Origin: Diphasiastrum complanatum
Lineage: Eukaryota > Streptophyta > Lycopodiopsida > Lycopodiales > Lycopodiaceae
Assembly (NCBI GenBank): GCA_029204225.1
Contig: CM055109.1
Location: 33,733,167 to 33,797,166, forward strand
Direction of reading: 5' to 3'
DNA: 64,000 nt
How positions within the stretch are numbered: position 1 is the stretch's first letter; each line of letters begins with the position of its first letter. This document shows positions 4,473 to 64,000 of this stretch, piece after piece. The position numbers and the translations under genes were made by a program. A model generated the notes under the pieces. That model saw only the letters and a list, made by a program, of their open reading frames with translations, ran no database searches and was not told the origin of the DNA.

Positions 4473-6185
4473 CTAATTTTTGGCCTCCTCAAAGCAAGAG
4501 GGTTCAGTAGATGAAATAGTGTCACTCATACGTGCAAGCTTTACCTTAAACTTGTCAGGTTCCTTGCTCCCTCTTGTGGAATGCCACAACTCTCCCTCCT
4601 TGTTAGGCTCGGCAATTTTCCCTTCCTTGTCACTCATGATTTTAGTATACCATTTGGGTAACTTACATTGAGGTGATCCTGCTACGAGGTGAATAGGAAT
4701 CCCATGGTGCATCTTGCTCCTTCCTTTTATCACCTGCTACCTCAGTCTTTTTCGATCCAATAGATTTGTTTCTCACTCTCCATCTCGTCACTATGGTGGG
4801 AGGAGTACCACGTCCCTCATCATCATCATAATGATCTTCCTGTGGTGGTAGAACTACTTCATCCTCTTTGAGAAGCTTGCATAGCTCATCATTATTCTTT
4901 TCTTCATCCCCAAATCTATGGATTTCATCAAATAAGACATCACAGCTTATGTGCACATGTAGCCCCTCTGGATCATAACATCTATATCCCTTGGTTTGTT
5001 CATCATATCCTATAAAAATGCACTTCAAGGCCTTTACCTGCATTTTGGCTCTCTCGCTCTTAGGTATGTGAACATACACTCGACATCCAAACACTCACAA
5101 CCCATCCATCTTAGGCTTCTTAATAGTGAATGCCTCCTCGGGTGTGCGATTATGTACAACAACTGTAGGGCTTCTATTTTGCAAGAACACAGCAGTTTTG
5201 ACAGCTTCTTCCCATAAAGAATCAGTATGTGTCATCATTGCCCTAGCTGCTTCGACAATGGTACGATTCTTTCGTTCAGCTACCCCATTTTGTTGAGGTG
5301 TATCAACCTGCGCAAACTCCTGTTTAATGCCATGCTCCTTGCAAAAATCAATAAAATTTGTGGAACGATACTAACCACCACGATCTGCCCTGAGTACCTT
5401 GATCTTAGCACCTGATTGATTTTCAGCCAATGCTTTGAAGCTTTTGAAGCATCCAAATGTGGCAGACTTCTACTTAACGGTGTAGATCCAGGTCTTTTGT
5501 GAGTAATCATCAATGAAGGTTAGCAAATAAAATGCTTTACCAATAGACATTACCTTCATTGGCTCACATAGGTCAGAGTGTATCAACTCAAGCACTCGTT
5601 TTGCTCTTGTTGCTCCTTCCTTGTTGAACTTCTTCATGTGTAACTTGCCTAGCACGCACTCCTTGCAAATGGACTCTTCCTTGTCATCCAAACTGGGTAG
5701 ACTTGTTAGCATCTTGAGCTTACAAAGCAGCCTCAAGCTCTTGAAGTTCAAATGCCCCATACGTCTATGCCATAAATCACTTTGTGATATAGATGTAGAT
5801 GTTAACACATTGCACTTCGTAACAACAACATTTAACTTGTACAAACCACAAGTTTTGTGCCTAAAGCCATCAGCAATCACCTTGAAACCCTATTTCACAT
5901 CCTTGATCTGGCATTTCTTGTCGTTGAACTCCACCTTCAACTTATGATCTGTCATTGTACCAACATATAAAAGACTCTTCTGAAGGCCAGGAACATACAA
6001 CACATTTCAATTACCTTCACATGTCCATCAGGTTATTGAATAGGCACTTCACCAACTCCATGAATTTGGCACTCGTCGTCGTTCGCCTGCGCAACTCTTT
6101 CTCCATCATCAGTAAGCTCCAGATTTTTAAACCATGATTTGTTGCCAGTCATGTATCTTGTTGCTCCTGAGTACACATACCAATG
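4473..6185 (-). pseudogene. Copia protease-integrase remnant of the same minus-strand element
   Basis: Continues the 3012-4454 element upstream. Reading leftward from 6185: protease active-site region WYVYSGATRYMTGNKSWF (the usual Asp of DSGA reads Tyr), then GAG_pre-integrase (LWHRRMGHLNFKSLR), zinc cysteines (CKECVLGKLH) and the integrase core start (LIHSDLCEPM, FIDDYSQKTW) at 5470-5880. The integrase C-terminal domain (GCRVYVHIPKSER..KCIFIGY) is at 4663-5094, and the pre-RT linker runs to 4473. There are multiple stops and frame changes. The element is truncated in protease at about 6185, where plus-strand gypsy sequence starts, so gag and the 5' LTR are missing. Confidence 0.8.
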
Positions 6186-6194
6186 TGTATGATC

Positions 6195-7335
6195 AATGGA
6201 ATGTTGCGATGCTAATGTTGTCGCGAAGCTTTATGCTAAAGAGTTGAAGTATGAGTTCTTTAAGAAAGAACTGTTGTATCTGGGTCATGTCATATCCTGG
6301 AAGTGAATTATGACTGACCGGAAAGATTAAAACGGTTCTGGATTGGCTAATTCCTAAAACAAGAAGGGAACTTAAATCTTTTTTGGGGTTTACTATTTTC
6401 TTCCATAGATTCATCATGGATTATTCGAGGATTGCTGCACCTCGCAACGATTTGTTGAAGGGGATAATTACTCGAAAGGGGAGTCCACCTCTCATGTGGA
6501 ATGAGACATTAGATGCAAGTTTTAATAAACTTAAGGAACTAATTGTCTCAGCACCAGTGTTGATCATAGTGGATCCTTATTTGGTTACAGTGGATGCTAG
6601 TGATTATGTGTTTGGTGCAGTTCTTCAAAAAGAGGGGAGGCCAGTTGCTTTTGAGAGTAAGAAATTATCTGATGCAAAGACTAGGTATACGACCCAAGAA
6701 AAAGAACTTTTGCGGTTGTGCATGCGTTGAAGATGTGGAGACACTATTTATGTTAGTCAATCTATAGTAAGTCAGATCACCAACCATTAAAATATTTTTG
6801 TAATCCGAAAGCAAAAGGCTTGATGGGCTGAACTGATGCAAGAATTCAACTTTGATTTGAGATATATAAAATGATCGTCAAATCAAGTGGCAGACGCCTT
6901 AAGTCGGATTGGAGAGATGAATGAGTTTTTGTTCACTTAGGTCACTACTAATTTCTATCTTTCATTTTGAGGTCTTTATGAACAAGATCCTCACTTCGGA
7001 CCTAAATGGCAAACGATTTTAAATGGCTCTCAATCGGTTACTGATTTGCAAGGTGACCAGTTGGTTGTGAAAGATACGAAGGTAGTGGATGATTTTCCCA
7101 TTCCATTCGGAATGAGATCGGAATGAGATTTTGTTCCGAAAGGGAAAAGTGTGTGTACCAGGAATGGATGCGTTAAAAAAGAAAATTTTATTTGAATGTC
7201 ATGATGCACCTTGTGCTAGGTATCCAGGTATACATTGTACACTAAATTTGGTACGAAGAGACTTCTTTTGTCCAAAGTTGAAACCTTTCGTAGGATCTTA
7301 TGTGTTGAACTGTGATCAGTGCCAATGTACCAAAC
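6195..7335 (+). pseudogene. Second gypsy RT-RNaseH-integrase fragment (mosaic piece 4)
   Basis: Ty3/gypsy pol remnant. RT motifs (AKELKYEFFKKELLYLGHVIS) lie near 6225-6300. RNase H is at 6383-6730 (GFTIFFHRFIMDYS, TVDASDYVFGAVLQKEGRPVAFESKKLS, YTTQEKELL). After a broken interval, the integrase H2C2 zinc domain runs from 7131 to about 7335 (CHDAPCARYPGIHCTL, LNCDQCQCTKP). It is a different gypsy sequence from the fragment at 1444-2657, because the RNase H regions are clearly different sequences. It is joined on the left to the truncated minus-strand copia and on the right, in frame, to copia integrase. Confidence 0.8.
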
Positions 7336-7715
7336 CTTTTTTATCAACTTTAAAAGTTTTTGGATGTATTGCTTATGCGCAGATTCCTCATGATCTCAAA
7401 AAGAAGCTCGACTTCCAAAGTATCAAGTGTATTTTCATCAACTACACTACTGCAGATCAAGCTTACAAGTTGTTCGATCCTATCGAGGTGAAGATATTTG
7501 CTAGCCGGGATGTCATCTTCATCGAAGATCAGTTTATCAACCTCAAGGGAAAAGGCAAAGCCCATGTAGCTGACTTGTCTGACTCGTCCGACATATTGAA
7601 CTTCAAGGTTCCTCGGTCGACTATTCTCATTGAAGGTCCAAGCTCATCTACTTTCAACGAACAACATATCAATGGCAAATCCGAATCATTTACAGCTATT
7701 TTGTTTTCATATTGA
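7131..7715 (+). pseudogene. In-frame gypsy-integrase/copia-integrase chimeric frame
   Basis: One open frame of 194 codons. Residues 1 to about 70 are a gypsy integrase zinc domain ending CDQCQCTKPF. Residues from about 72 onward are the copia integrase C-terminal domain (LKVFGCIAYAQIPHDLKKKLD, KCIFINYTTADQAYKLFDP, FASRDVIFIEDQF). The switch between two superfamilies happens within a few codons near 7335 without breaking the frame. The catalytic integrase core is absent, so no working enzyme is expected. The frame could be an accident of a recent deletion or template switch, and nothing in the sequence indicates that it is expressed. Confidence 0.7.
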
Positions 7716-7965
7716 ATCAATACTATCTTCTTATTGCGTTCAAATTCATATTAGAATGTAAGCGTTTTTGTAGTTCTTCGTGACAGATTATTTGTTTAAT
7801 AATTCAATGTTTAATGTTTGGCTACGTAATCACTGTAGTACTAATGATCTTAAGATAAGTTACTATAAGATTGAACATGATTCTCTTACCATTGTTTTGT
7901 TAATAATTGACAGGCATAGTCATGCATAGACAAATAGGAAGATAGTTTATTCAGCGCATATAGGT
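7716..7965. other. AT-rich spacer between two copia fragments
   Basis: No coding similarity seen. It separates the chimeric frame from the next copia fragment. Both neighbours carry the same integrase-tail region, so this is probably old insertion or UTR sequence. Confidence 0.4.
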
Positions 7966-9953
7966 GTTTTGATCCTGTAATGAACAAGATTCACATAAGC
8001 AAAGATGTGATCTTTGATGAGACACATAGGTATGAAGGTGAAGACCATTTAAGTGATGAAAGCATCAAAAGACTTCCCACAGTCTTGGAAGAAGAAAATG
8101 AAGAGGACACTCCACAGGATGATGCACATGAAGACGAAGATCGAGAGGGTGATTATGAGAAGACACCACATATCCAAGAGCCTAGGGAAAGGTACTTTCC
8201 GATAAGAGCAGCAAAGGAGAAACCGGTTGGAAGTAAGAGACATTACTTGGACACTCCTCGGGACACATACTCTCCAGGAAGTGTATCACCTGAGTCTAAG
8301 ATACCAAAATGGTATGAAAAGATCATGAAGGACACAAAGCTAAATCAACTAGGATCTAGCACACAAGAAGAAGTGAGAAGATCAAAGAAAGTCTACCAAT
8401 TGCTATCATGTGAACTATGCCCTAATGAGTGACATTTTGAAGTGTCGAGAGCCATCAACCTTTGATGAGGCAAAAGATCACAAAGAGTGGCAAAGGGCAA
8501 TGGAAGAGGAGATGGAGTCCATCCACAGGCATGATACATGGGAGTTACTTGATCTACTACTTGGAAAGAAACCCGTTGACAACAAATGGGTATTTAGAAC
8601 AAAGTTTCATGTGGATGGCACGATAGCAAAGCATAAGGCACGCCTAGTAGTGAAGGGCTACGAGCAAAATAAAGGAATTGACTATGAAGAGACATTTGCT
8701 CCACTGGCTAAGTCGACTACGCTACGCTTATCATTGCCTTAGCATCTCATTTCGGGTGGAAGATCCATCAAATGGATGTGAAGTCCGCATTTTGAATGGT
8801 GACTTAGAGGAAGAAGTTTACATGGTCCAACCACAGGGCTTTATGGCAAAGAGACAAGAACATAAGGTGTGCAAGCTACACAAAGCACTTTATGGCCTTA
8901 AGCAATGCCACGCACATGGCATGGACGCATTGACAATTACTTTCTTTCTCATGAGTTTGTAAGAACAAATTCAAATCCAAATATTTATGTTCTTATAAAT
9001 GAAGATAGCATTGCCTTGATTGTACTTTATGTTGATGATATTATTATCACGGGCAATGATGAGAATCTCATTCATTCTATCAAAGCCAATTTATGCAAGC
9101 AATTTGAGATGACAGATTTAGATCTTATGCACTATTGCTTGGGTGTCGAAGTATGGCAAACTGACAGTGATATCAGGTTGTGTCAAAACAAGCATGTGCG
9201 TGAGATATTAGAGAGATTTCGCATGACAGAGTGTAAACCTTCCATCACCCCTTGCGAAGCTAGTAAGAAATTATCTTGTGTTGATGATAGTGCACATGTT
9301 GATGCTACTTTATTTCGTCAGCCAGTTGGGAGTTTGATATATCTTCCGGCTACACATCCTGATATCTGTTATGCTGTAAGTCTGATTAGCCAATTCATGT
9401 CATCACCCACTATGGATCATTGGAAAGCTGTGAAAAGGATTTTTAGGTATGTAAAAGGTACACCTAACCTTGGCCTACTCTACAAAAGACAAAGTGCTTT
9501 ACCTAAGTTGCAAGGTTATGTTGACGCTGATTGGGCAGGAAATGTAGATGATAGAAAGTCAACAACAGATTATGCCTTCAATTTTGGTAGCGGTTGTTTT
9601 TCATGGTCTAGCAAGAAGCAAGACACCATTTCTCTTTCTTCTACAGAAGCTGAATATAAAGTGTTAAGTTCTGCTACTCAAGAAGCTATTTGGCTGCGTA
9701 AGTTGTTACGTGAAATTGGCATGAAGCAAGTGCATCCCACTGTTATTTTCTGTGACAGCCAGAGTGGAATTCAATTGGCTAAGAATCTTGTCTTTCACGC
9801 GAGAACAAAACATATTGAGGTAAAATATCACTTTGGATTTAAGTATTGCATAGTGTTTTACGTTGTTGCAAGTTGCTGATATATTTACGAAAGCTTTAAG
9901 TAAAGAGAAGTTTGAAACTTTTAGAGCCAAACTTGGCTTAGATCTGGTTATGT
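7966..9953 (+). pseudogene. Copia integrase tail-RT-RNase H pseudogene
   Basis: The 3' part of a copia polyprotein, with at least three frame changes. The integrase tail and acidic linker (KIHISKDVIFDETHRYEG, then an Asp/Glu-rich stretch) are at 7980-8432. RT begins at 8410-8742 ([47 protein letters not shown]). It shifts frame near 8740 and again near 8920, and continues at 8905-9879 with YVDD at 9028-9039. RNase H follows (DADWAGNVDDRKST, SSTEAEYKVL, CDSQSGIQLAKNLVFHARTKH). The end motif IFTKALSKEKFETF lies in a shifted frame near 9890-9930. It repeats the FDP..DVIF segment already present in the chimeric frame just upstream, so it is a separate copia fragment. Confidence 0.85.
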
Positions 9954-12936: not shown

Positions 12937-13113
12937 TATGGTTAATTTTATCAGACACTGACAAAACAAAAATTATATCAAGAAACTAACTCAATCATCC
13001 TGTCTATAGAGACATTAGCTAACAATAAATTAGTCATATTGCCTTTTCGTTCTTTTGATAATATGCTTAAATGGTGCTCTTGTTTCTTGGTTTAGCTGCG
13101 AAGTATTAAGCGC
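12937..13113 (+). repeat. Direct repeat unit 2 of about 180 bp
   Basis: Second copy of the 11771-11960 unit, with small deletions (for example it lacks the second TTAA near its right end). It abuts the 3' truncation point of the minus-strand gag element, so one of them was probably cut by the other's arrival. Confidence 0.7.
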
Positions 13114-13756
13114 ACAAAGGTTAGTCAGAACAATGTCATTGGTGGCACCATCATAAATCAAATGATAGATTCCAAACTTTCCATCCAACATGAAGTAGAG
13201 TAGGTGAAGATGAGTATCAAACCTAATAAATCCAGTCTTCTTGAGTCCATAACAAGCCTCAATAAGCTCACCAATGAGATCTCCCTTGCCTTGAAGAAAT
13301 TGCCTCGATTTGCTCCATGTAGTCTTCTCCAACCAACCTTTTGTCATCTTGATCATGAGTGATCAATCCACAATCATAGAATCTTTTGAGTTGATGAAGA
13401 GTTGTGAGATCCATGCCTTGGATCTTCCATTGCTCTTTCCTTCATAGGACTCCCTCTTAATGATTGCATCATAAGAAGTAGAAACCTCAAAAATAATTAG
13501 AAGCCATGAAAAAAATGATTAGTACCTTCAACATAAGGATGATTGAAGTACTCTCTTTTTTCAAACAGGAACTTCTACTCAATGTTTTAGGTAATGACTC
13601 ATATGATAATGATTCATCCTCACTATCATTCACAATGACATCATTCAAAGTACATCCTACTTTGAACTCTTCACATACTTCTCTTCTTCTTGACTTGTGA
13701 CTATCTCCCTCACAAAGTCTCTTGATAGAACCATTTGATCTACTCTCTTCAAACAT
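13114..13756 (-). pseudogene. Truncated novel ORF region (copy C) related to the 61-64 kb element
   Basis: Two frames here match the unfamiliar part of the large frame at 61264-64000. 13487-13756 shares REVCE.FKVGCTLNDV, the Ser/Leu-rich SLSRSSCLK.ESTS and LMLKVL. 13030-13356 and adjacent sequence share LLQGKGD.IGELIE.CY and IRFDTHLHLLYFML. The linker between zinc knuckle and REVCE is about 500 bp shorter than in the large copy. Everything matching 61264-62340 is missing: the similarity ends at about 13114, at the 180-bp direct repeat. Frame changes and stops make it a pseudogene. Its value is that it shows the novel region belongs to an older, multi-copy family. Confidence 0.7.
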
Positions 13757-13759
13757 TCA

Positions 13760-14544
13760 TTAGCAAAATGCCCTTTGATTTCACAATAAAATCATTTCAA
13801 CTTAGACGTATCTTTCTTTTTGCCAAAAGAGGAAGTCTCACCTTGATCTTGCTCTTTAGACCATTTTCCTTTGCCTTTGCCCTTGAACTTGCCTTTGATG
13901 AACATAGCATCCTCTACATAATGAGATGTCGATGTAGATCCACCTCTTCTTGATTGAAGACTATACTCCTCATTCACCAAGATCTCTTGCAAATCCACAA
14001 TACTTGGCAAAGTCTTTTGAATAGCAAAACTTTGAGCAATATTAGCATGATCATCCAACAAGCCATTAAGTATAACTTGAACATTAAGTATAGCTTGAAC
14101 AAGTTCTACCTCCTTAATGCTTTCATCAATACATGCTAACTCAGCATTGAATGCTTTAACCCTCAAAACAAAATCATGAGTACTCTCTTCCTTCTTTTGC
14201 AAACTTTGAAAAATTTGTCTTCTTAGAGTCAACACTCTAGATGTAGACTTGGATTGATAAAGCTTCTTCAAAGCTTCCCAAGCCTCCAAAGATGATGTGC
14301 ACTTACCAATCTCCTTGAGAAGTTCATTGTTAACATTCATCTTAATCATGTGTAGAGCCCTTTTGGCCCTCTTATCATACCTCATTTGATCTTGTTGAGT
14401 TGTTGGTCTCTCCTTCAAACCTGCAACAATCTCCATCAACTCATTCAACTCCAATAAGGAATCCATCCTCACCTTCCAAGTAGAATAGTTGATTGAAGTA
14501 AACCTATCATTGCCTTCCAACATGAATCCACCACTTGTAGCCAT
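13760..14544 (-). pseudogene. Copia gag (copy C) with stop at the zinc knuckle
   Basis: Gag of a copia-type element. It most likely starts at the ATG at 14544 (MATSGGFMLEGNDRF), since the ATG-like upstream extension to 14613 has no gag similarity. The UBN2 region (NYSTWKVRMDSLLELNELM, KRALHMIKMNVNNELLKEIGKC, RVLTLRRQIFQSLQKKEEST) is complete. It contains an 18-bp in-frame tandem duplication (VQAILN VQVILN, about 14064-14099). The basic linker KGKFKGKGKGKWSK precedes the zinc knuckle. There the first Cys codon reads TGA, ending the frame at 13792. The rest of the knuckle (FYCEIKGHFANEC) is still readable, but downstream sequence is in another frame. Confidence 0.8.
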
Positions 14545-14895
14545 GTTGCAATGACTTGATCTTCTCCTTTCAACCCGTTCCAATGCACAAAGCACTCTCT
14601 TGAATGTCAACAAATGAACTCAAGAAGAAATCACAAAGATATGGAACCTCTCAAATCTCTTCTAGCACTTCTAACTAGAAAATCAATACATAGAATAGTG
14701 ATCAACCTATGATCTATCCTCAATCTAATGATTCTTGCCACTTTCTAAGATTGAAACACACTCAAATGGAGTTCAGTAACCTCACAAACTAGAGATCCAA
14801 TTAAAATTAGGGTTTTGACAAAATCACAAAAAATTCAATATCTCAAATTCTACCTGCAATTGCCAGATGTTATCATCTAGTCACCATGTGTCATT
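14545..14895 (-). repeat. 5' leader of the copy C gag element
   Basis: Read on the minus strand, this matches the leader in front of the gag start at 53831 (shared stretches include CCATATCTTTGTGATTTCTT and TTTCAATCTTAGAAAGT). No PBS or LTR follows on the right, so the element is truncated at both ends. Confidence 0.6.
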
Positions 14896-26802: not shown

Positions 26803-26880
26803 TGTGAAAATTGTCAACATTTCCTAGCTAGTTTGAGGCCTAAATTGGCTAAAATTGTAAATAGTTTTGGTTCTGGAGTT

Positions 26881-26892
26881 TCACACGTGTGA
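26881..26892 (+). promoter_or_regulatory. Palindromic G-box in LTR U3
   Basis: TCACACGTGTGA is a perfect palindrome around CACGTG, the core bound by plant bZIP and bHLH factors. It is also present in the 3' LTR (32656-32667) and in the otherwise diverged U3 of element D (61160-61171). Function is inferred from conservation only. Confidence 0.5.
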
Positions 26893-27082
26893 ACCAGGCC
26901 ACAATGTTTTTATTTACTGTATTTTTTCAGTATGATGAAGTGTCAAACTTCATACCCTTCAAAATGAGACCATTTTGATGTATTTTGGTCATATAAGCCA
27001 TTTTTAGCTATTTTTCCTATATAGGGAATATCTAGGGTCAAGTACCTTCTAGAGAGAGGAGAGAGAGTCATCTTCCTCATCC

Positions 27083-27090
27083 ATAAATAG
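27083..27090 (+). promoter_or_regulatory. TATA-like box of element A LTR
   Basis: ATAAATAG lies downstream of the GA-rich tract. The equivalent position in element D's LTR reads TATATATAG (minus strand, near 60972). It is positioned as expected for the LTR promoter. Confidence 0.5.
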
Positions 27091-27457
27091 TAGGGAAGTC
27101 GTGGAAAACAGGTTGGAGAAACCTTTTGTATGCTTCATTGAGATCAATAGATCATTGTCATTGTTTCTTCCTCCATTGAGAGCATTGTTGTGTGTATTGT
27201 CTTCAAGCTATTGTGTATGATCTTAGGTGCTTTCCAAAAGTGATAGGCTGATGTATTATGGACTGTATAATGCTATTTTGGGCCGCACTTGATGTTTATG
27301 GAAGTTTCCATTTGTGATAAATGCTTTTTGATCAAGTTCTTTGCATTCTAGGTAGCATAGAATGTGTTGCCAATTCCTAGCTTATGTAGTTTGGAGTGCA
27401 AGCATTCAAGCCAATGATCTTGGAGTTTAGATCCACTTAGGATCTGTATTTTTCACA

Positions 27458-27469
27458 TGGTATCAGAGC
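27458..27469 (+). other. Primer binding site (initiator Met tRNA)
   Basis: TGGTATCAGAGC directly follows the 5' LTR end. It is the standard plant copia site complementary to the 3' end of initiator methionine tRNA. Confidence 0.95.
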
Positions 27470-28629
27470 TGGTTGGCTTCTATTTACAGTAAGTATTCCA
27501 TTTTTGGTGATATTTGGATGTTTGATCAAGTTCTAGCATGATTTTGCATTGCTTTGTTGATCAAATCTTACTAACCTTTGTTTTGTGAGTTGAACTTGTG
27601 GATCAAAAGCATATTTCAGGTCTATTGAAGATCAGAGGCTGAAAAGAAACTATTTTGGATCAGATCATAACACCTAATCATTTGTGATTGTGAGGCTTGT
27701 GCATATTCAATACTAACAATGTTCTTTTCAATCCTATTGTTGACAATCTCCATTCTTGGATGAACACTCTCCTTAAGTGGATGAAACTTCTCCTTAAGTG
27801 GATGACAAATGCTCTTTTGAGTGAGTTGTAATTCTCCTAAAGGCTGAGCAAAGCTCCCATTTGGATGAAAGATCCCCTTTTTTGGGTGAACATATTGTAA
27901 GCTCCATTGTGAAGAGCATATTGTAAAGATTGTCATCAATTTTGGCATAAATTTTGGTGTACTTTGTTGAGCATGTAAGTAACTCTCCTTATGTAATTTG
28001 ATTGGAGCATTTGCTGGAAGGTGTTAACCATTATGCAAGTGTGTTTTCAGGTTCTTAACAGGTTGAGGAACATTCTCATGTGAAGTGATCTTAGATCTAC
28101 ATCTAAACACCAAGATTTGACAAGATAGTGAAGCTAGTCTTGTGATTCACTAAGTGTGCTCATTCATTCACCTCTAAATCTTGTATTTATCACTTGCTGG
28201 AGTTTATAAACTTTTAGAAGTGTGGTTTACATGTGGTTTTACAGGTTGAATCAATATCTTAGTGTGTTGATCATATGTTGATCAAGTTTGTTCATTACTA
28301 GGTAATCTTGGCATCCTAGTTTTGGGTATTTTCTAAGAATGCAAGTAACTCTTCACACCATAACTTGATTTGGTCACTTGCTGGAAAGTTTGAGAGCTTA
28401 AGCAAGAGTGTGTTCAGGTTGGTTTGATTTTGTAATCCATTCTTAGTGTGTGCAAAGTGTTGCATGTGTTTCAATCTTCCTTTCTATGCTTGGAAACCAT
28501 CTAGGTTCAAGATAGAAGTGTTTTAGGGTCCTAAATCTTCATAGATCTCTTTATCTATCATTTGTTGAGAGAAAAGTGAGTGCTAAGTGCTTTAGGACAG
28601 AACCTAAAAGTTGAAGAAACATTAGAATC
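27470..28629 (+). other. Long 5' leader of element A with a triplicated motif
   Basis: 1160 bp without gag similarity. Three related segments near 27971-28055, 28155-28250 and 28338-28425 share AAGTAACTCT, CACTTGCTGGA and a pyrimidine-rich CAGGTT ending, about 183 bp apart. They could be packaging or structural elements or simply an old duplication. Confidence 0.6.
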
Positions 28630-30480
28630 ATGGCTTCCAATGGTGGGATCATGCTAGAGTCTAGTGAAAGGTTGAGTTCATCAAACTACTCTACTTGGAA
28701 AGTGAGGATGGAGTCCTTACTTGAGTTGAATGAACTCATGGACATAGTTGCAGAAATTGAAGAGAGACCTCTCACACTTCAAGAGCAACAAAGGTTTGAT
28801 AAGAAGGCCAAAAGGGCTCTTCATATCATTAAAATGAATGTTACAAATGAACTTCTCAAGGAAGTTGGAAAGTGTCAAAGTTCAAGTGAGGCATGGAATG
28901 CCTTAAAGAAGCTCTTTGAATCAAAGTCCACATCTAGGGTATTGACCCTAAGGAGACAAATATTTTCTAGTAGGCAAAGAGAGGGTGAAAGTTCTCATGC
29001 ATTTATCTTGAGAGTTAAGTCCCTAAGTGATGATTTAGCATGCATTGATGAGAACATAAAAGATGGTGAAATAGTCCAAGTTATGTTGAATGGTTTGCTA
29101 AATGAACATGCTAACCTTGTGCAAAGTTTTGCCATTCAAAGAGTCTTGCCAAGTGTGGTTGACTTGCAAGAAATCTTATTGGCTGAAGAACATAGGTTGC
29201 AATCAAAGCTTGATGGTGCATCCTTGCAAGGTGGAGGTGAAGAGGCTTTCTTCACAAAAGGCAAATTCAAGGGCAAAGGTAAAGGCAAAGGGAAATGGTC
29301 CAAAGGTGGTAACTTTGATCATGATGATCACTCTTCCTCTTCCTCTTATACTAAGAACAATAAGTCAAAGTTCAAGTGCTTTTATTGTGGGATAAAAGGT
29401 CATTTTGCAAATGAATGTTATAAGAAGAAAAGAGAGCAAGGAGAGAGGCAAGGAAATCTTACAATAGATGAGGAAGAACATAACACATGTGAATCACTTG
29501 TTATGACTTCAAGTTTGTTAGCCAACATAGATGATAATGATCCTTGGTGGATTGATAGTGGAGCCTCATCTCACATGACGAGACATAAGGAATACTTTAC
29601 ATCCTTATTGTCTTATGAGGGAGAAGGTAACATCATCTACACTGCAAATGATGGTCAATGTGACATCAAAGGCATAGGCACTATTCCTATTTCCCTTTCA
29701 ACAAATAGGAAAGCAAATCTTGAAAATGTTTTGTACATTCCTTCAATCACTAAGAATTTGCTTAGTGTAAGTCAAATGATTGACAAAGGACTTGATGTGG
29801 AGTTCATTGGAGATGCATGTTTGATAAGTAAATGTGGATCCTTGATTGCTCAAGGTAGGAGGCATGGTAAACTTTTCAAGCTTGATGCATGTGTGATCTC
29901 TAATCATGAAGGATGTATGGCTAGGGAGCAATTGACAAACCAAGAAGTTTGGCACAAGAGGTTGGGCCATCCCAACTTCAAATCTTTGGAGGTAATGGCA
30001 AAGAAAGAGCTTGTTCTTGGTCTCCCTAAAAGTCTTGTTGCAAACAATAGTGTTTGTGAACATTGTGCCTTGTCCAAATCTCATAGACTTGCTTATTCTA
30101 GATCTACTTCTAGATCTAAAGAAGCTTTTCAACTTGTGCATTCTGATATTCATTCTTCTAGTACAACTAGCAATGGTGGGGCAAAGATGTATGCAACTTT
30201 CATTGATGACTTTAGTAGGTATACTTGGATCTATCTTCTTAAAAGTAAGGATGAAGTGTTTGCTGCATTTGTCAAGTTCAAGAATGAAATGGAAAACCAA
30301 TTCAATACAAAGATCAAATGCTTAAGATCTGATAATGGAGGGGAATACACCTCAAATAGGTTCAAAGACTTTTGTATAGCACATGGGATTAAGAGAGAGA
30401 TGTCTAGTCCTAGGACTCCACAACAGAATGGAGTGGCCGAGAGGAAGAATAGAACCCTATTGAATGTGCCAAGGCAATGA
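28630..30480 (+). CDS. Element A gag-protease-integrase frame (frame ends early)
   Basis: 616 codons from the ATG in MASNGGIMLESSERL. The copia gag domain (UBN2 type) occupies residues ~20-200. A Gly/Lys-rich basic stretch is at ~215-240. The CCHC zinc knuckle CFYCGIKGHFANEC is at 250-263. The protease motif WWIDSGASSHMT has its active Asp at 309. GAG_pre-integrase with HKRLGH is near 440-450, and the zinc cysteines CEHCALSK near 475. The integrase core has catalytic D505, D568 and E604, with the expected 35 residues between the last two. The frame stops at TGA 30478-30480, shortly after the Glu, because reading shifts by one base just upstream. The RT half continues in the next frame from 30477. 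The break lies inside a domain, so it is a disabling mutation and not a programmed shift. Gag itself is intact. Confidence 0.93.
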   Translation: MASNGGIMLESSERLSSSNYSTWKVRMESLLELNELMDIVAEIEERPLTLQEQQRFDKKAKRALHIIKMNVTNELLKEVGKCQSSSEAWNALKKLFESKSTSRVLTLRRQIFSSRQREGESSHAFILRVKSLSDDLACIDENIKDGEIVQVMLNGLLNEHANLVQSFAIQRVLPSVVDLQEILLAEEHRLQSKLDGASLQGGGEEAFFTKGKFKGKGKGKGKWSKGGNFDHDDHSSSSSYTKNNKSKFKCFYCGIKGHFANECYKKKREQGERQGNLTIDEEEHNTCESLVMTSSLLANIDDNDPWWIDSGASSHMTRHKEYFTSLLSYEGEGNIIYTANDGQCDIKGIGTIPISLSTNRKANLENVLYIPSITKNLLSVSQMIDKGLDVEFIGDACLISKCGSLIAQGRRHGKLFKLDACVISNHEGCMAREQLTNQEVWHKRLGHPNFKSLEVMAKKELVLGLPKSLVANNSVCEHCALSKSHRLAYSRSTSRSKEAFQLVHSDIHSSSTTSNGGAKMYATFIDDFSRYTWIYLLKSKDEVFAAFVKFKNEMENQFNTKIKCLRSDNGGEYTSNRFKDFCIAHGIKREMSSPRTPQQNGVAERKNRTLLNVPRQ

Positions 30481-32582
30481 GACTACATGCTAATCTTGCT
30501 AAGTCTTTTTGGGGGGAAGCTTTAGCATGTGCTAACTATCTATGTAATAGATGGAAAAGTGCTTCCTTGGATGGTAAAACTCCTCATGAGGTTCTTTATG
30601 GTAGAAGGCCGAGTGTCAAGCATTGTAGGATCTTTGGATGTACATGTTTTGTCAATATCACACTTGATGATAGAACTAAAGAAGATCCTTCATCAAAGAA
30701 GGGTGTGTTTGTTGGCTATAGTGAAGTAAGCAAGGCTTACAAAGTGTACATTCCTTCTACAAAGAAAGTTGTCATAAGTAGGGATGTCATCTTTCATGAA
30801 GAGAATGTTTCCAATGTTGTTGATGTTGATGTTGATGTGCCTACTAATCATCATGATGTGCAAGATGTCTTGGATGAAGATGGAGATGCCACTCCAAAGC
30901 AAACTTCAAGGAAGACTCAAAGGCAAAGGGCTAAGCCATCAAGGCTAACCTATGATGAAAAAGGAAAGCAAGTGGTGGACAACTCTAACTTTGCTTTTCT
31001 TACCTCTTTTGATGAACCAACTTGTGTAGGTGAAGCAATTCAAAAGAAGGAATGGATCCAAGCCATGGATCATGAGCATCAAGCACTCATCAAAAGCAAC
31101 ACATGGAGGTTGGTAAAGCTTCCAAAGGACAAGAAGGCAATTGGTTGTAAGTGGATCTTCAAGATCAAGACAAATCAAGATGGATCAATCAACAAGTACA
31201 AGGCAAGGTTGGTGGCAAAGGGGTATGCTCAAGAATATGGTATTGACTATGATGAGACCTTTGCACCCGTGGCAAAGATGGTAACTATTCGAATCCTAAT
31301 CTCTCTTGCAACTCTTTATGATTGGGATATGTGGCAAATGGATGTTACTAATGCCTTCTTGAATGGTGATCTTGAAGAAGATATTTACATGGAGCAACCC
31401 GAGGGCTATGTTTCACATGATGAGCCTAATCATGTGTGCTATCTCCAAAAGAGTTTGTATGGGCTAAAGCAAGCACCAAGGAGTTGGTATGCTAAGCTCA
31501 ATTCCTTCTTACTTTCTCAAAACTTTGTTATGAGTGAGTATGATCATTCTCTCTACTTTAGATTGAATGAAAATGATATCACTTTACTTTTGATCTATGT
31601 TGATGACATTATCTTAAGTGGTGGTAACAATCTAGATATAGATGAAATCAAGATGGCACTCAAAAGAGAGTTTGAAATTCAAGATCTTGGTAAACTTCAT
31701 TATATCTTAGGAATAGAGATTATTAGAACTTCTAAATCTACATTCATATGTCAAGAAAAGTATGTTAACTCTATTCTAAAAAGGTTTCATATGGAAGATT
31801 GTAAAGTTGTTTCTACTCCTATGGAATCAAATGTAAAGCTAACTACAAGAAGTAATGAAAGATCCTTCAAGGACATTACTCTCTATAGAAAGCTAATAGA
31901 ATCTCTTATATGGTTAACCATCACAAGACCTGATCTAAGCTTTGTGGTTGGTAAACTAAGTCAATTTATGCAAGATCCTAGTGAGGCTCATTGGAAGCTA
32001 GGAAAGAGAGTACTTAGATACATCTCGGGATCTAGAGATTTTGGCATCTTGTATGGAGGTACTACACCTAACCTTTGTGGATTTTCATATTCAGATTTTG
32101 CAGGTGATCAAATGGATAGGAAGTCAACAAGTGCCTTTGCAATCTATCTTGGAGATGGAGTGGTCTCATGGCTATCAAAGAAGCAACCAACTATCTCTCT
32201 ATCTTCCACCGAAGCCGAGTACAAGGCATTAACAACATGCACCAAGGAGATTCTTTGGATCAAGAGGATGTTATTGGATCTTCACTTGCTGGAACCAGAG
32301 AAGACTCCAATCATACTTTGTGATAACCTTTCAGCCCAAAGCTTGGCAAGCAATCCTGTTTTTCATGCAAGGAGCAAGCACATTGAGATTGCTCACCATT
32401 TTGTGAGAGATCAAGTCATTGCCAAAGAGGTGGAGCTTCAACATGTCTCTTCAAAGGAGTGTGTGGCTGATATCTTCACCAAACCATTGGGAAAGGACCT
32501 ATATTTAATGCATAGATCTAATCTTGGAATGTGCTCAAAGACTATGTTGAAACTAGCATCCAATGTTGAAGAGGGAGTGTGA
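30477..32582 (+). CDS. Element A integrase tail-reverse transcriptase-RNase H frame
   Basis: 701 codons. The first ~100 residues are the integrase C-terminal part (FWGEALACANYLCNRW, YGRRPSVKHCRIFGC, KGVFVGYS, ISRDVIFHEE). An acidic linker follows, then RT: TWRLVKLPKDKKAIGCKWIF, KARLVAKGYAQ, YDETFAPVAKM, QMDVTNAFLNG. Catalytic YVDD is at residue 374 (31596-31607). RNase H follows (SDFAGDQMDRKSTS, SSTEAEYKAL, CDNLSAQSLASNPVFHARSKHIE), ending ADIFTKPL. The first ATG is only where this frame can be called open. The real polyprotein began at 28630, and the 4-base overlap of the two frames marks a one-base change. The stop codon at 32580-32582 overlaps the first bases of the 3' LTR, so the polypurine tract is inside the coding end. 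Confidence 0.93.
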   Translation: MRLHANLAKSFWGEALACANYLCNRWKSASLDGKTPHEVLYGRRPSVKHCRIFGCTCFVNITLDDRTKEDPSSKKGVFVGYSEVSKAYKVYIPSTKKVVISRDVIFHEENVSNVVDVDVDVPTNHHDVQDVLDEDGDATPKQTSRKTQRQRAKPSRLTYDEKGKQVVDNSNFAFLTSFDEPTCVGEAIQKKEWIQAMDHEHQALIKSNTWRLVKLPKDKKAIGCKWIFKIKTNQDGSINKYKARLVAKGYAQEYGIDYDETFAPVAKMVTIRILISLATLYDWDMWQMDVTNAFLNGDLEEDIYMEQPEGYVSHDEPNHVCYLQKSLYGLKQAPRSWYAKLNSFLLSQNFVMSEYDHSLYFRLNENDITLLLIYVDDIILSGGNNLDIDEIKMALKREFEIQDLGKLHYILGIEIIRTSKSTFICQEKYVNSILKRFHMEDCKVVSTPMESNVKLTTRSNERSFKDITLYRKLIESLIWLTITRPDLSFVVGKLSQFMQDPSEAHWKLGKRVLRYISGSRDFGILYGGTTPNLCGFSYSDFAGDQMDRKSTSAFAIYLGDGVVSWLSKKQPTISLSSTEAEYKALTTCTKEILWIKRMLLDLHLLEPEKTPIILCDNLSAQSLASNPVFHARSKHIEIAHHFVRDQVIAKEVELQHVSSKECVADIFTKPLGKDLYLMHRSNLGMCSKTMLKLASNVEEGV
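32568..32577 (+). other. Polypurine tract of element A
   Basis: GAAGAGGGAG immediately before the 3' LTR. The identical tract precedes the LTR of element D on the other strand (about 61251-61260). It primes plus-strand DNA synthesis. Confidence 0.9.
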
Positions 32583-33232
32583 AAATTGTCAACATTTCCT
32601 AGCTAGTTTGAGGCCTAAATTGGCTAAAATTGTAAATAGTTTTGGTTTTGGAGTTTCACACGTGTGAACCAGGCCACAATGTTTTTATTTACTGTATTTT
32701 TTCAGTATGATGAAGTGTCAAACTTCATACCCTTCAAAATGAGACCATTTTGATGTATTTTGGTCATATAAGCCATTTTTAGCTATTTTTCCTATATAGG
32801 GAATATCTAGGGTCAAGTACCTTCTAGAGAGAGGAGAGAGAGTCATCTTCCTCATCCATAAATAGTAGGGAAGTCGTGGAAAACAGGTTGGAGAAACCTT
32901 TTGTATGCTTCATTGAGATCAATAGATCATTGTCATTGTTTCTTCCTCCATTGAGAGCATGGTTGTGTGTATTGTCTTCAAGCTATTGTGTATGATCTTA
33001 GGTGCTTTCCAAAAGTGATAAGCTGATGTATTATGGACTGTATAATGCTATTTTGGGCCGCACTTGATGTTTATGGAAGTTTCCATTTGTGATAAATGCT
33101 TTTTGATCAAGTTCTTTGCATTCTAGGTAGCATAGAATGTGTTGCCAATTCCTAGCTTATGTAGTTTGGAGTGCAAGCATTCAAGCCAATGATCTTGGAG
33201 TTTAGATCCACTTAGGATCTGTATTTTTCACA
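32578..33232 (+). repeat. Element A 3' LTR
   Basis: 655 bp. It differs from the 5' LTR at three positions that I could find (C/T near 32648, T/G near 32961, G/A near 33020). It is followed by the CACCC target duplication. Confidence 0.95.
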
Positions 33233-56711: not shown

Positions 56712-56712
56712 G

Positions 56713-57052
56713 TGTCAAGGATCTTACTGGCAGTATAGTTAGCTAATTTGCAAGCAATCTGACATCAATCAGATAAACAGTAAAGAGAGATCACACACCA
56801 ACCCAAGAGAACACTTCTGAACTATATTTACAAAAGAGATCGAAAGAATTATATACACAATCTAATTTTTGTGGGGTACTGCTGCATGGCAGTTTGGTCC
56901 CCGTTACGGGACGCATGTCCCAACTTACACTACGTGTACTATCAAACTGACACACATGCATACTATCACAAAGGCAGTAAAAAACTCGAAATCACTGCTA
57001 AACATGGAAAGTCATGAACTATGAGAGAAACTCGGGCTTACTTATTCTAACA
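56713..57052 (-). repeat. LTR of the truncated copia (copy 2)
   Basis: Duplicate of 2658-2997, essentially identical. Boundaries carry the same uncertainty. Confidence 0.55.
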
Positions 57053-57066
57053 CTCTCCCTTAAGCC

Positions 57067-58509: not shown

Positions 58510-58527
58510 TGCTTTTTGCCATATGTC

Positions 58528-60240: not shown

Positions 60241-60249
60241 TGTATGATC

Positions 60250-60603
60250 AATGGAATGTAGCGATGCTAATGTTGTCGCGAAGCTTTATGCTAAAGAGTT
60301 GAAGTATGAGTTCTTTAAGAAAGAACTGTTGTATCTGGGTCATGTCATATCCTGGGAAGTGAATTATGAGCTGACCGAAAGATTAAAACGGTTCTGGATT
60401 GGCTAATTCCTAAAACAATAAGGGAACAAAAATCTTTTTTGGGGTTTACTATTTTTCTTCCCCATAGATTCATATGGATTATTCGAGGATTGCTGCACCA
60501 CGCAACGATTTGTTGAAGGGATAATTACTCGAAAGGGGAGTCCACCTCTCATGTGGAATGAGACATAGATAGCAAGTTTTAATAAACTTAAGGAACTAAT
60601 TGT
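60250..60603 (+). pseudogene. Gypsy RT fragment (copy 2), cut by element D
   Basis: Counterpart of 6195-6550. RT motifs KLYAKELKYEFFKKELLYLG are readable. The match to copy 1 stops at AACTAATTGT, exactly where the LTR of element D begins (60604). Confidence 0.85.
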
Positions 60604-61250
60604 TGTGAAAAATACAGATCCTAAGTGGATCTAAACTCCAAGATCATTGGCTTGAATGCTTGCACTCCAAACTACATAAGCTAGGAATTGGCAACACATT
60701 CTATGCTACCTAGAATGCAAAGAACTTGATCAAAAAGCATTTATCACAAATGGAAACTTCCATAAACATCAAGTGCGGCCCAAAATAGCATTATACAGTC
60801 CATAATACATCAGCCTACCACTTTTGGAAAGCACCTAAGATCATACACACAAAGCTTGAACTCAATCACTACACAATGCCAACAATGGAAGGAGAACCCA
60901 ATAGAAAAATCTCTCATTAAGCAAATGAATACAATGGATCTGCTCCAACCTGTTTCTCCACGGCCTACCTGCTATATATAGCTGAGAGAGATGACTCTCT
61001 CTCCTCTCTCTAGACCCTCCTTACCTAAAATATGCCCTATATAGGTAAAATTGGCATATATGTCCAAAATACATGAAAATGGACTCATTTCGAAGGTCTT
61101 GAAGTTTGACACTTCTTCATACTGAAAAAATACACTTACTAAAAATATCTAGACCTGTTTCACACGTGTGAAAAGTCAGATCCTAAACTATGTGCCATTT
61201 TTAGCAATTTTGGCCTAAAACTAGACAAGGAAATGTTGACAATTTTCACA
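60604..61250 (-). repeat. Element D 3' LTR
   Basis: 647 bp with the same termini as element A. Bases 60604-60848 (R-U5 side) match element A 27213-27457 with one difference. The remaining ~400 bp (U3) is only about 75% similar by eye, but it keeps the TCACACGTGTGA palindrome (61160-61171), the GA-rich tract and a TATA box. Confidence 0.92.
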
Positions 61251-61263
61251 CTCCCTCTTCAAC

Positions 61264-64000
61264 TTAACTTGCTAGTTTTACAACACTACTTTGTTCCAAC
61301 TTAAGAATGATCTCCATCATCAGAATAGATCTCTTCTCAAGGATCCTAATATGTACAAAATAGGACACAACATAATTGATATAGATAATAGTGTCCATAT
61401 AGGATGCTTCACTATTTCTTACATCAATTTTACATAGAATCATAAAAATGGTACATGTAAAAGAACATAGAATCTCAATTAATGAATTCCTCCATGTATC
61501 CATCTCTGGTTTCTCTGTAAAATAGCAGCAAACAAGTTGTAAATGAAAGTGATCAACAAGTGTTTGCATGCCTCCTCCACATTTCACTATACATATAGTG
61601 AATGCAACATGTATCTCCATGAATGAACTTCCGTCACCACCTTGCCTTTGTAGATCTTCAATCCATGAAAGCCTTTGAGTGAATGAATGCCAAAAAGATG
61701 TGTTCCCTACTCCATTTGAATGACCAAAACCTGAACTTGAAATACTTGAAGTACCTCCACAAGATTTGCACACAACGCTTGATCCTACAATGTCAACAAG
61801 TTGCCAATTTGCCAACACTAGAATACTAGATCTTGAACTTTGTTCAAAAGAAAACATATTGACCACTTCAATACCTTTCAAGATCTGAATGAATTCATGT
61901 ACTTGATCATACAAACCAGCAATGATAACTATTCCATCTCCAAGATCCAAAGGATGCAAAACTATGGAACTAGTTTTATTGAAATTTGACAATTTCAACA
62001 CATTGACATAACAATGTTCATACATGAGATTAGGCAAGTGAGGTAGAGTAAGAAGACACTTCCTTGCAGCTCCAAAGACCTTACTTGAACCTTCAAGAAC
62101 CTGTAAAAACAGATTCAAAATGCCTTGACCATTTGTCTCTTCTTTGATGCTTTTCACTAGCTTCGAATTGCCACTTGTCTCTTGGTGTTGATGAAGCAAT
62201 CCAAGATCAACCTCTTGATCTTCCAATAAGACATCAAAGATCTTGCATATGTGAACATCTTCAGATCTGAAACTCTGAAGATACTCCCTCTCAAACACAT
62301 GATTAAGATCCCACAAGATCTCATCAATGCTCAAATTTGACCCTTCACTATAGTTAGTGAAAACAATGCCACCATCATAAACCAAAAGATAGATTCCAAC
62401 ATTTCCATTTAACATGAAGTAGAGTAGGTGAAGATGAGTATCAAACCTAATCAAAACAGCCCTCTTGAGTTCATAACAAACCTCAATAAGCTCACCAATG
62501 ATATCTCCCTTGCCTTGAAGAAGTTGCCACTTGAGTTGCTCCATGTAGTCTTCTTCAACCAACCTTTTGCCATCTTGACCATGAATGAACAATCCACCAC
62601 AATCATAGAATGCTTTGAGTTGATGAAGAGATGTTAGATCCATGCTTTGGATCTTCCCAAGAACCACTCTTCCATTGCCCTTTCCTTCACAAGACTCCCT
62701 CTTAATGCTAGCACCACAAAAGTTAGAAACCTCCCTCTTGATAGTTGCACCATAAGAAGTAGAAGACTCTTGAATATTAGAAGCCAAGAAAAGAATCCTT
62801 AGTACCTTCAACATAAGAGTGATTGAAGTACTCTCTCTTTTCAAACATGAACTTCTACTCAATGATTTAGGTAATGAGTCATATGATAATGATTCTTCCT
62901 CACTATCGTTCATAAAAACATCATTCAAAGTACATCCTACTTTGAACACTTCACATACTTCTCTTCCTTTTGACTTGTGATCTCCCTCACCAAGTCTCAT
63001 GATAGAAACCTTTGATCTACTCTTTTTATGAAGAAATGTGACACCACTTGTTGCACAAATGACTTTATCACAAAAAGATGTAAAAGAACCATTTCCTTCA
63101 AGCATGCTCAAAGCACCATCATCTTTTCCCACATGATTACATACATCAATATGAAAAGAATTAGAAGAACAACCATCTTCTTGCAAAGAATGACACTTAG
63201 CATCTCCATCTTTTTCCATATGAACAAACAAGTCATTAGCAACAATCACTTCCAAAGAAGAATCTTCATCAACTCCATTGATGAAGTTAGCTCCTTCCTT
63301 ACCTTTTCCATTTTTGCACTTGCCATCTAGCACCATTGAAGAACCAACAAGCCTTGGAAGTCCATGAGTAGAAGAGTACAAACATGATGCTAATTTAGCT
63401 CCACATGACTCCATTTGACTAGTAGGTAGCACTAGTCCATCTTCAAGATCCAATGGATCCAAAAAATTGACCATAGATTCACCAAAGCTTGCCAAGTTAG
63501 CACAACAATTATCATCTCCAAGAAGTACATTAGATCTCAACCTAGATCTAGCATTTTGTTTCTTATGGCATTCATTTGCAAAATGTCCTTTCACTCCACA
63601 ATAAAAACATTTGAACTTGGACTTATCTTGCTTCCTACTTTGCAAAGAAGAAGAATGCTTTCCATGCTCCAAACTACCTTGCTTGGACCACTTGCCTTTG
63701 AACTTGCCCTTTGTGAAAAGAGCTTCTTCATCTCCACCTTGTGTTGATGCACCACCACCTTTGGCTTGCAACCTATGCTCTTCAGCCACCAAGATCTCTT
63801 GCAAGTCATTGACACTTGGCAAGGACTTTTGTATAGCAAAGCATTGTACAAGGTTAGAATGTTCATCAAGCAAACCATTCAACATGACTTGAACTAGTTC
63901 CCCATCCTTTATGCTTTCATCTATGCATGCTAGATCATCATTCAAGGATTTAACCTTCAAGACAAATGAATGTGCACTCTCTCCCTCTCTTTGACAACTT
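61264..64000 (-). CDS. Gag fused to a ~760-codon protein of unknown function (5' end outside window)
   Basis: An uninterrupted frame of about 911 codons, still open at base 64000. The TTG at 63960 is not a real start: upstream codons still match gag (QREGES.H.F.L). Order: gag UBN2 tail (VKSLNDDLACIDESIKDGEL, LPSVNDLQEILVAEEHRLQ), basic GKFKGKWSK, then the zinc knuckle CFYCGVKGHFANEC at 63568-63609. The rest, 63540 to 61264, matches no protease, integrase, RT or RNase H motif. It has Ser-rich and acidic stretches and a block REVCEVFKVGCTLNDV (about 62960-62910). A second block is LLQGKGDIIGELIE, then IRFDTHLHLLYFML (about 62525-62400). A PLDL.DG.V motif is present twice (about 63440 and 61945), and a hydrophobic run LIEILCSFTCTIFMILC lies near 61440-61490. 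The last residues KLAS resemble the pol C-terminus of element A. I do not recognise the function. It could be a captured host sequence, an env-like protein or a gag-associated factor. Confidence 0.88.
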   Translation of the reverse strand, partial: SCQREGESAHSFVLKVKSLNDDLACIDESIKDGELVQVMLNGLLDEHSNLVQCFAIQKSLPSVNDLQEILVAEEHRLQAKGGGASTQGGDEEALFTKGKFKGKWSKQGSLEHGKHSSSLQSRKQDKSKFKCFYCGVKGHFANECHKKQNARSRLRSNVLLGDDNCCANLASFGESMVNFLDPLDLEDGLVLPTSQMESCGAKLASCLYSSTHGLPRLVGSSMVLDGKCKNGKGKEGANFINGVDEDSSLEVIVANDLFVHMEKDGDAKCHSLQEDGCSSNSFHIDVCNHVGKDDGALSMLEGNGSFTSFCDKVICATSGVTFLHKKSRSKVSIMRLGEGDHKSKGREVCEVFKVGCTLNDVFMNDSEEESLSYDSLPKSLSRSSCLKRESTSITLMLKVLRILFLASNIQESSTSYGATIKREVSNFCGASIKRESCEGKGNGRVVLGKIQSMDLTSLHQLKAFYDCGGLFIHGQDGKRLVEEDYMEQLKWQLLQGKGDIIGELIEVCYELKRAVLIRFDTHLHLLYFMLNGNVGIYLLVYDGGIVFTNYSEGSNLSIDEILWDLNHVFEREYLQSFRSEDVHICKIFDVLLEDQEVDLGLLHQHQETSGNSKLVKSIKEETNGQGILNLFLQVLEGSSKVFGAARKCLLTLPHLPNLMYEHCYVNVLKLSNFNKTSSIVLHPLDLGDGIVIIAGLYDQVHEFIQILKGIEVVNMFSFEQSSRSSILVLANWQLVDIVGSSVVCKSCGGTSSISSSGFGHSNGVGNTSFWHSFTQRLSWIEDLQRQGGDGSSFMEIHVAFTICIVKCGGGMQTLVDHFHLQLVCCYFTEKPEMDTWRNSLIEILCSFTCTIFMILCKIDVRNSEASYMDTIIYINYVVSYFVHIRILEKRSILMMEIILKLEQSSVVKLAS

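What the first reader, a model, noticed from the sequence alone, without database searches (positions are those of the whole stretch)
61264..63560. Gag reading frame continues into ~760 codons of unknown protein in place of pol
Seen: one open frame from gag, through the zinc knuckle, to two codons before the PPT, with no retroviral enzyme motif. Known: TR-GAG elements carry only gag between LTRs, and some plant retrotransposons have captured host coding sequence. Inferred: this is a non-autonomous element whose protein does something beyond structural gag. A frame of more than 900 codons without a stop, next to pseudogenes full of stops, suggests recent selection or very recent insertion.
Basis: partly seen in the sequence, partly recalled or inferred. 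Interest (0 to 1): 0.88.

Follow-up and report, generated by a model that had tools for sequence, protein, structure and literature searches.

The report
Non-autonomous Copia element with eroded pol
This is a recently multiplied plant jumping gene that kept its capsid gene while its enzyme genes eroded past recognition; the long open frame is most likely that eroded enzyme region rather than a new protein, and the odd part is that it has no stop codons although its amino acids drift freely.

Summary
In detail: a 911-codon minus-strand frame (61264-63999) runs from gag through a CCHC knuckle to 3 nt before the PPT. In the genome the frame is about 1,053 codons and the family amplified recently: 47 of 50 scored copies lack stops, 16 of 19 have exact TSDs, LTR pairs differ by 0-6 substitutions.

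Residues 151-911 ("X") sit where INT-RT-RH should be. A stretch matches the copia RT palm (HHalign P 1e-4; 5e-4 to 3e-8 in six older copies) without the YxDD box, though HMM searches miss it. Older relatives still carry Pol_BBD before X. Against six older copies, 249 fixed differences in X fall evenly on codon positions (85/84/80; 55 synonymous, 56.5 expected): no protein-level constraint. Gag is constrained.

An autonomous copia at 26803-33232 is the likely helper: R-U5, PBS and ~1 kb of leader are ~99% identical, U3 and gag ~78%.

Best reading: a gag-supplying non-autonomous element, a Copia counterpart of wheat RLG_Quinta. Why X stays stop-free is unresolved; selection for the open frame itself is my most novel reading.

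The parts
61264..63999 (-). Open frame, 911 codons in the window (5' open), gag end plus X
63559..63999 (-). gag part, residues 1-147; protein-level constraint
63568..63612 (-). CCHC zinc knuckle, residues 130-144
   Evidence: zf-CCHC 18.8 bits, cut-off 20.8
61267..63549 (-). X, residues 151-911: eroded pol in frame, no protein-level constraint found
62290..62637 (-). residues 455-570: RT palm-like relic
   Evidence: HHalign score 44.6, P 1.1e-4, 0 of 300 shuffles as high; older copies P 4.7e-4 to 3.1e-8; not found by RVT_2 or copia pol HMM
62368..62379 (-). YDGG at the place of the YxDD catalytic box (residues 541-544)
   Evidence: alignment; YDGA in copy 2 and YDG- followed by S, A or D in the six older copies
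62695..62766 (-). in-frame tandem duplication of 36 nt inside X
61251..61260 (-). polypurine tract
   Evidence: sequence; same tract before the autonomous 3' LTR
60604..61250 (-). 3' LTR (647 bp, TG..CA)
   Evidence: 85% to the autonomous LTRs
60604..60849 (-). R-U5 part of the LTR, 245 of 246 positions identical to the autonomous 5' LTR
60599..60603 (+). target site duplication, one side (ATTGT; other side outside the window, seen in sister copy L002)
5209..9082 (+). paralogue without the insertion (empty site at 6542-6546)
   Evidence: flanks of L002 match at 99.7-100%
26803..33232 (+). autonomous copia partner: LTRs 26803-27457 and 32578-33232 (99.5% identical), leader 27458-28629
28615..30480 (+). 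partner gag, Pol_BBD, pre-integrase and integrase frame
   Evidence: Pfam
30453..32582 (+). partner RT/RH frame; one frame break in the integrase region separates it from the previous frame
   Evidence: RVT_2 E 1.1e-78
13117..13756 (-). second copy of X (residues about 323-549), broken by frameshifts and stops, behind a different gag
13744..14823 (-). gag of the second copy, 69% identical to ours where compared

Best explanation
It is a recently active, non-autonomous Ty1/copia family. Its only gene with detectable constraint is gag. The rest of the frame (X) is the former INT-RT-RH part of pol, drifted past recognition but still in frame and lacking the RT catalytic box. It transposes with the enzymes of an autonomous copia family, one copy of which lies 27 kb away. 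Shown: family structure, recency, gag constraint, no detectable constraint on X, RT similarity by profile comparison, older relatives with Pol_BBD joined to X, and a shared PBS, R-U5 and leader block. Inferred: mobilisation in trans by that family; acquisition of its R-U5-PBS-leader by template switching in a shared particle; its own Gag serving shared particles. Speculative: the frame stays open because stops would leave a long 3' UTR on an mRNA that must still be translated for Gag.
For: 47 of 50 scored copies stop-free; 19 of 20 fetched 5' ends have LTR and PBS, 16 of 19 exact TSDs, 25 LTR-LTR substitutions over 19 pairs. Mosaic against the partner: LTR 402-647 245/246 identical, leader 7 differences in about 1,000 bp (measured on sister copy L002), but the LTR up to position 433 is 336/430 and gag 76-79% identical. 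RT palm: Smith-Waterman 90, 0 of 400 shuffles as high; HHalign P 1.1e-4, 0 of 300 shuffles; six older copies P 1.1e-5, 4.7e-4, 3.5e-7, 4.3e-8, 2e-5, 3.1e-8, five of six scoring above our segment. Pol_BBD before X in L055 and L056, E 4.7e-25 and 3.3e-24. Gag mismatches 35/30/100 by codon position against the partner, N/S 0.33, and 0.48 against copy 2; X 85/84/80, 55 synonymous of 249 against 56.5 expected.
Against: HMM searches do not see RT in X: a copia pol HMM scores our frame -2.2 bits, below many shuffles, an RT-only HMM -1.5, RVT_2 absent at E<=10. Copy 2 supports RT only in part: its later piece scores 65 against one copia pol (0 of 1000 shuffles) but 37 against the partner pol (110 of 1000), its earlier piece not at all. 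INT core and RNase H parts of X are unrecognisable; the INT-start anchor is weak (11 of 1000 shuffles as high; HHalign P 0.023). The partner copy has a frame break, and I could not count partner copies. Gene conversion could also explain the R-U5-leader identity.
Confidence: 0.7

Rival explanations
1. Same eroded pol, but the frame is open only by recency and luck: the master happened to be stop-free when it amplified, and nothing selects for openness.
For: The copies are very young. X shows neutral N/S. Discounting the changes on our own stop-free lineage, 3 fixed stops against 7.1 expected is not significant (P 0.077). In the older subfamily the frames of L056 and L057 end at nearly the same place in X, and one X block carries a 1-nt gap, so that master may not have been open to the PPT.
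Against: About 9.8 stops are expected on our lineage since the subfamily split and none are present (the frame was picked for being open, so this is biased). Stops are rarer among fixed than among private changes (3 of 249 against 9 of 181, Fisher P 0.033).
Confidence: 0.4
2. One reading: X is a captured host coding sequence or a new protein with a function beyond gag.
For: Long stop-free frame with codon periodicity and codon usage like a gene; frame 0 scores best of six in all ten segments.
Against: No homologue among scored candidates, neutral N/S, RT similarity and Pol_BBD next to X in older relatives.
Confidence: 0.08
3. X is a fast-evolving accessory protein under diversifying selection.
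For: N/S above neutral against copy 2 (2.05; 9 synonymous against 16.2 expected, 1986 of 2000 nulls at least as high) and in residues 288-549 against the six copies (2.07; 77 of 2000 nulls as low).
Against: Both are the same part of X and related sequences; over the four blocks N/S is neutral.
Confidence: 0.05
4. X acts as RNA or DNA in cis (spacer length, packaging), not as protein.
For: X is 89% identical to copy 2 while the attached gags are 69% identical, without protein-level constraint.
Against: Recombination between gag backbones explains this too; fixed differences reach 15% of sites in the compared blocks; no RNA-structure test was made on X, and Rfam finds nothing in the window.
Confidence: 0.07

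Closest known systems
RLG_Quinta, partner of autonomous RLG_Cereba in einkorn wheat (PMC11302176; abstract and passages seen)
   Same: One frame coding GAG plus a domain of unknown function (DUF1), no RT/INT; PBS and LTR ends shared with an autonomous partner; divergent GAG lineages with signs of template switching; proposed to supply GAG.
   Different: Ty3/gypsy and centromere-specific. The origin of DUF1 is given as unknown; here the unknown part looks like eroded pol.
RLC_Giselle, proposed partner RLC_Inga, barley (PMC5738225; passages seen)
   Same: Copia; potentially intact gag, no RT and INT genes; conservation with the proposed partner highest around the PBS.
   Different: The passages describe no long unknown frame after gag.
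TR-GAG elements (PMC8704663 and PMC9784723; abstracts and passages seen; the original TR-GAG paper is not held)
   Same: Two LTRs, gag frame, no pol enzymes; a copia TR-GAG was seen to transpose in Arabidopsis ddm1, with a related autonomous element suggested as protein source.
   Different: TR-GAGs carry gag alone; here 761 more codons follow in frame.
[quoted passage not shown] passages seen)
   Same: Semi-autonomous elements keeping GAG and supplying it to a group with an autonomous member.
   Different: Ty3/gypsy; Sabrina_SA and WHAM keep GAG-protease; other Sabrina variants replace GAG-Pro with unrelated short proteins.

Membership tests
LTR retrotransposon, Ty1/copia | Two LTRs with TG..CA ends and a 5-bp TSD | tested here: met
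   19 of 20 fetched copies have both LTRs, 16 of 19 exact TSDs; the window copy shows one LTR only
LTR retrotransposon, Ty1/copia | PBS next to the 5' LTR and PPT before the 3' LTR | tested here: met
   PBS TGGTATCAGAGC in 19 of 19 copies with a 5' LTR; PPT in 30 of 30 loci
LTR retrotransposon, Ty1/copia | Copia-type gag with CCHC knuckle | tested here: met
   Window part below Pfam cut-offs, but the homologous partner gag is Retrotran_gag_2 at E 1.7e-22 and the two align over 198 residues
Autonomous copia | PR, INT, RT and RH coding capacity | tested here: not met
   No such Pfam family after the knuckle; YxDD box absent
RLG_Quinta-like GAG-plus-unknown element | Single frame of GAG plus an unknown region, sharing PBS and LTR parts with an autonomous element | tested here: met
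RLG_Quinta-like GAG-plus-unknown element | Ty3/gypsy, centromere-specific | tested here: not met
   Gag and partner are copia; chromosomal placement was not examined
TR-GAG | Only gag between the LTRs | tested here: not met
   761 further codons in frame
Retrotransposon with captured host gene | A related host gene or protein | tested here: inconclusive
   No relative among scored candidates; the host genome was searched with the whole frame and with copy 2 only, and only top candidates were scored
Copia reverse transcriptase | RVT_2 match and YxDD box | tested here: not met
   No RVT_2, YDGG instead of YxDD; similarity by HHalign only: a relic at most

The most novel reading that the evidence does not exclude
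What selection keeps is the open frame itself, not its amino acids. In a non-autonomous element that still needs its own Gag translated, dead pol must either be deleted (TR-GAG) or stay stop-free up to the PPT, for example so that the RNA does not carry a kilobase-long 3' UTR and meet nonsense-mediated decay. X would be a stop-free spacer, and unknown regions such as Quinta's DUF1 could be of the same kind.
Probability: 0.3. Interest if true: 0.75.

Novelty: new variant of a known kind. Interest (0 to 1): 0.5.

Why it matters
It offers an origin for the unknown region behind gag in some non-autonomous plant retrotransposons: dead pol that lost its sequence but kept its frame. It separates two things usually read as one sign of function, an open frame and a conserved protein, with a measured case of neutral N/S in a stop-free 761-codon stretch. 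It also shows in sequence how a dependent element can stay matched to its helper: it carries the helper's R-U5-PBS-leader while keeping its own U3 and gag. The family is very young and has at least 50 copies in this genome, so whether stops in X lower RNA level is testable.

Tried and rejected
Captured host gene: disfavoured by the lack of homologues, neutral N/S and pol signals in and beside X. Chance similarity to RT: first suspected because HMMs failed; disfavoured after HHalign and the older copies. Diversifying selection: suggested by copy 2, not borne out over 249 fixed differences. Structure: AlphaFold2 on residues 151-911, single sequence, mean pLDDT 32, useless; no fold search was run. 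Viral contigs: no match. Prokaryote contigs: 11 pattern matches, none confirmed. Rfam: nothing in the window. PDB: only three weak knuckle matches, E 0.12-0.31. One search was invalid (loci not oriented) and was replaced. The polymorphism count (X: 25 nonsynonymous, 15 synonymous, 2 stops; neutral expectation 31.1, 8.5, 2.3) is not used as evidence of constraint because the 30 copies were picked by protein score. In one search the overlapping block 288-549 was computed but left out of the sum. Host not identified: named copia pol relatives are nearly all plants (one oomycete), none close; the genome has 1.74 Gb.

Full report
What is there. The frame 61264-63999 on the minus strand is open for 911 codons and runs off the window. 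It holds the end of a copia gag with a CCHC knuckle, then 761 codons (X) without a significant Pfam family. The stop is 3 nt before the PPT, and a 647-bp 3' LTR follows (60604-61250). X has codon periodicity, and codon usage like that of the autonomous element scores best in frame 0, of six frames, in all ten segments, weaker toward the C-terminus.

The family. The own-genome search scored 50 of 81,813 first-look candidates: 50 copies at 99-100% protein identity, 47 without a stop, 47 with a frame of 1,053 codons. This list is the top of a ranking by protein score, so it says nothing about how many worse copies exist. Thirty copies differ on average by 5.7 of 2,733 nt. Of 20 fetched 5' ends, 19 show the LTR and the PBS; 16 of these 19 have an exact 5-bp TSD, and LTR pairs differ by 0-6 substitutions, 25 in all, some with short indels.

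The insertion site. The sister copy L002 has TSD ACAAT on both sides and lies at the same site as the window copy. Its flanks match window 9082-6542 and 6546-5209 at 99.7-100%, so the start of the window holds an empty paralogue of that site. One detail does not fit a simple order of duplications: the 3' flank of L002 is 99.8% identical to the empty paralogue but only 97.0% to the flank of the window's own copy, while both copies are identical in the 2,733 nt of the frame and in the LTR. Either way the copies are young, and an open frame in a single copy is expected.

The partner. At 26803-33232 lies a copia element with 99.5% identical LTRs and gag, Pol_BBD, integrase, RT and RH in two frames, separated by one frame break in the integrase region. 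Against it our family is a mosaic. LTR positions 402-647 are 245/246 identical to its 5' LTR (244/246 to its 3' LTR). The leader, measured on L002 only, shows 7 differing columns in about 1,000. The LTR up to position 433 is 336 of 430 aligned positions identical, and gag is 76-79% identical; the break lies 110-160 bp before the gag ATG. In 28 of 30 copies the LTR matches that of the window copy with 0-4 mismatches; in L016 and L021 the ungapped comparison is spoiled by an indel. So the exchange predates the burst. Template switching in a particle holding both RNAs is the simplest cause; gene conversion is possible.

Origin of X. HMM searches fail: a copia pol HMM scores the frame -2.2 bits, below many shuffles, an RT-only HMM -1.5, and RVT_2 is absent. 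Pairwise comparison places residues 466-570 on the RT palm of the partner pol (score 90; 0 of 400 window shuffles as high); phmmer ranks the frame above 2,000 shuffles, at only 10.3 bits. HHalign gives score 44.6, P 1.1e-4, 0 of 300 shuffles as high (maximum 28.5), reversed controls 18-19, and 42.5 with a profile without window sequences. A DNA search with the broken second copy of X scored 40 of 2,373 candidates, at 90-100% identity to it; I fetched six of the 40. In all six X follows at about position 680-700 of the fetched stretch, and in four the gag-knuckle end is seen about 575 bp earlier; the stretch between holds Pol_BBD in the two scanned copies whose frame spans it (L055, L056). Three of six reach a purine tract like ours, exact in L053 and L057, with one change in L056. 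Their native open pieces match copia RT with P 1.1e-5, 4.7e-4, 3.5e-7, 4.3e-8, 2e-5 and 3.1e-8; five of six score above our segment (42.2); reversed controls score 13-20. This is what erosion from RT predicts. The second copy in the window agrees only in part. The start of X in L055 aligns with the integrase start at the colinear place, weakly (score 60, 11 of 1000 shuffles as high; HHalign P 0.023). The last codons before the PPT resemble those of the partner pol. INT core and RNase H parts of X are unrecognisable.

Selection. Gag: mismatches against the partner gag fall 35/30/100 on codon positions 1/2/3; N/S relative to a neutral reassignment is 0.33, and 0.48 and 0.50 against two other gags of the window. 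X: against copy 2, positions 27/24/17 and N/S 2.05. Against the older copies (six in two blocks, five in two), over 1,651 scored sites, there are 249 fixed differences: 191 nonsynonymous, 55 synonymous, 3 stops; expected 56.5 synonymous and 14.2 stops; codon positions 85/84/80; N/S by block 1.08, 1.31, 1.08, 0.77. An overlapping block (residues 288-549) gave 2.07 and is not in the sum. Changes private to one older copy have the same N:S (129:43, Fisher P 0.56) but more stops (9 of 181 against 3 of 249, P 0.033). Because our frame was picked for having no stop, only about half of the expected stops should count, and then the deficit is not significant (P 0.077). In the older subfamily the frames of L056 and L057 end at nearly the same place in X, so its master may not have been open to the PPT.

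Mechanism, by certainty. (1) Shown: a recently amplified non-autonomous copia family with constrained gag and no detectable constraint on X. (2) Well supported, not proven: X is eroded pol, without the RT catalytic box in the eight copies compared (ours, copy 2, six older). (3) Inferred: mobilised by the autonomous family, whose 5' RNA end it carries. (4) Inferred: its Gag serves shared particles, as proposed for Quinta (PMC11302176, passages). (5) Speculative: stops in X are selected against because a Gag mRNA must avoid a long 3' UTR; that long 3' UTRs provoke decay in plants is recalled, from no call. One search on this point (listing only) showed me no precedent, which does not prove there is none.

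Place among known things. It works like RLG_Quinta with RLG_Cereba and is not a TR-GAG, since the frame does not end with gag. A Copia element with potentially intact gag and no RT/INT, with a proposed partner, is described from barley (RLC_Giselle). What this case adds is the evidence that the unknown region is pol drifting neutrally in an open frame. That nobody has described this was not established: papers were searched only.

Noticed in passing
1-6546 and 54055-60603; also G000:C18 near 32.14-32.15 and 33.68 Mb: Stretch of at least 6.5 kb present twice in the window at 98.9% identity; further near-identical copies of the neighbourhood on the same contig, so a recently duplicated region.
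   Followed up: partly
L002 flanks against window 5209-6546 and 59266-60603: The flank of L002 is 99.8% identical to the empty paralogue but 97.0% to the window's own filled locus, although both carry an identical insertion at the same site. Unexplained; conversion or assembly error are possible.
   Followed up: no
L023 and L027: Two copies on different contigs (C9, C18) share the same 10 bases after the LTR; perhaps another duplicated locus.
   Followed up: no
1425-2129 and 55479-56183: A frame resembling Ty3/gypsy RT-RNase H (judged by eye) follows directly on a copia gag/integrase frame, which looks like a nested or recombined element.
   Followed up: no
11771-11949 and 12936-13109: Direct repeats of about 175 bp, 89% identical, on either side of about 1 kb, right behind the second copy of X; perhaps a small terminal-repeat element.
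   Followed up: no
61928-61995 and 63431-63498: Internal repeat of X, 71% over 68 nt, 1503 nt apart and in phase; in L055 and L058 the segment matching codons about 169-219 of the frame lies further down in X, so X has rearranged.
   Followed up: partly
40457-40961; 21669-22157: Tandem arrays: 86-bp unit with 5.9 copies; 25- and 50-bp units.
   Followed up: no
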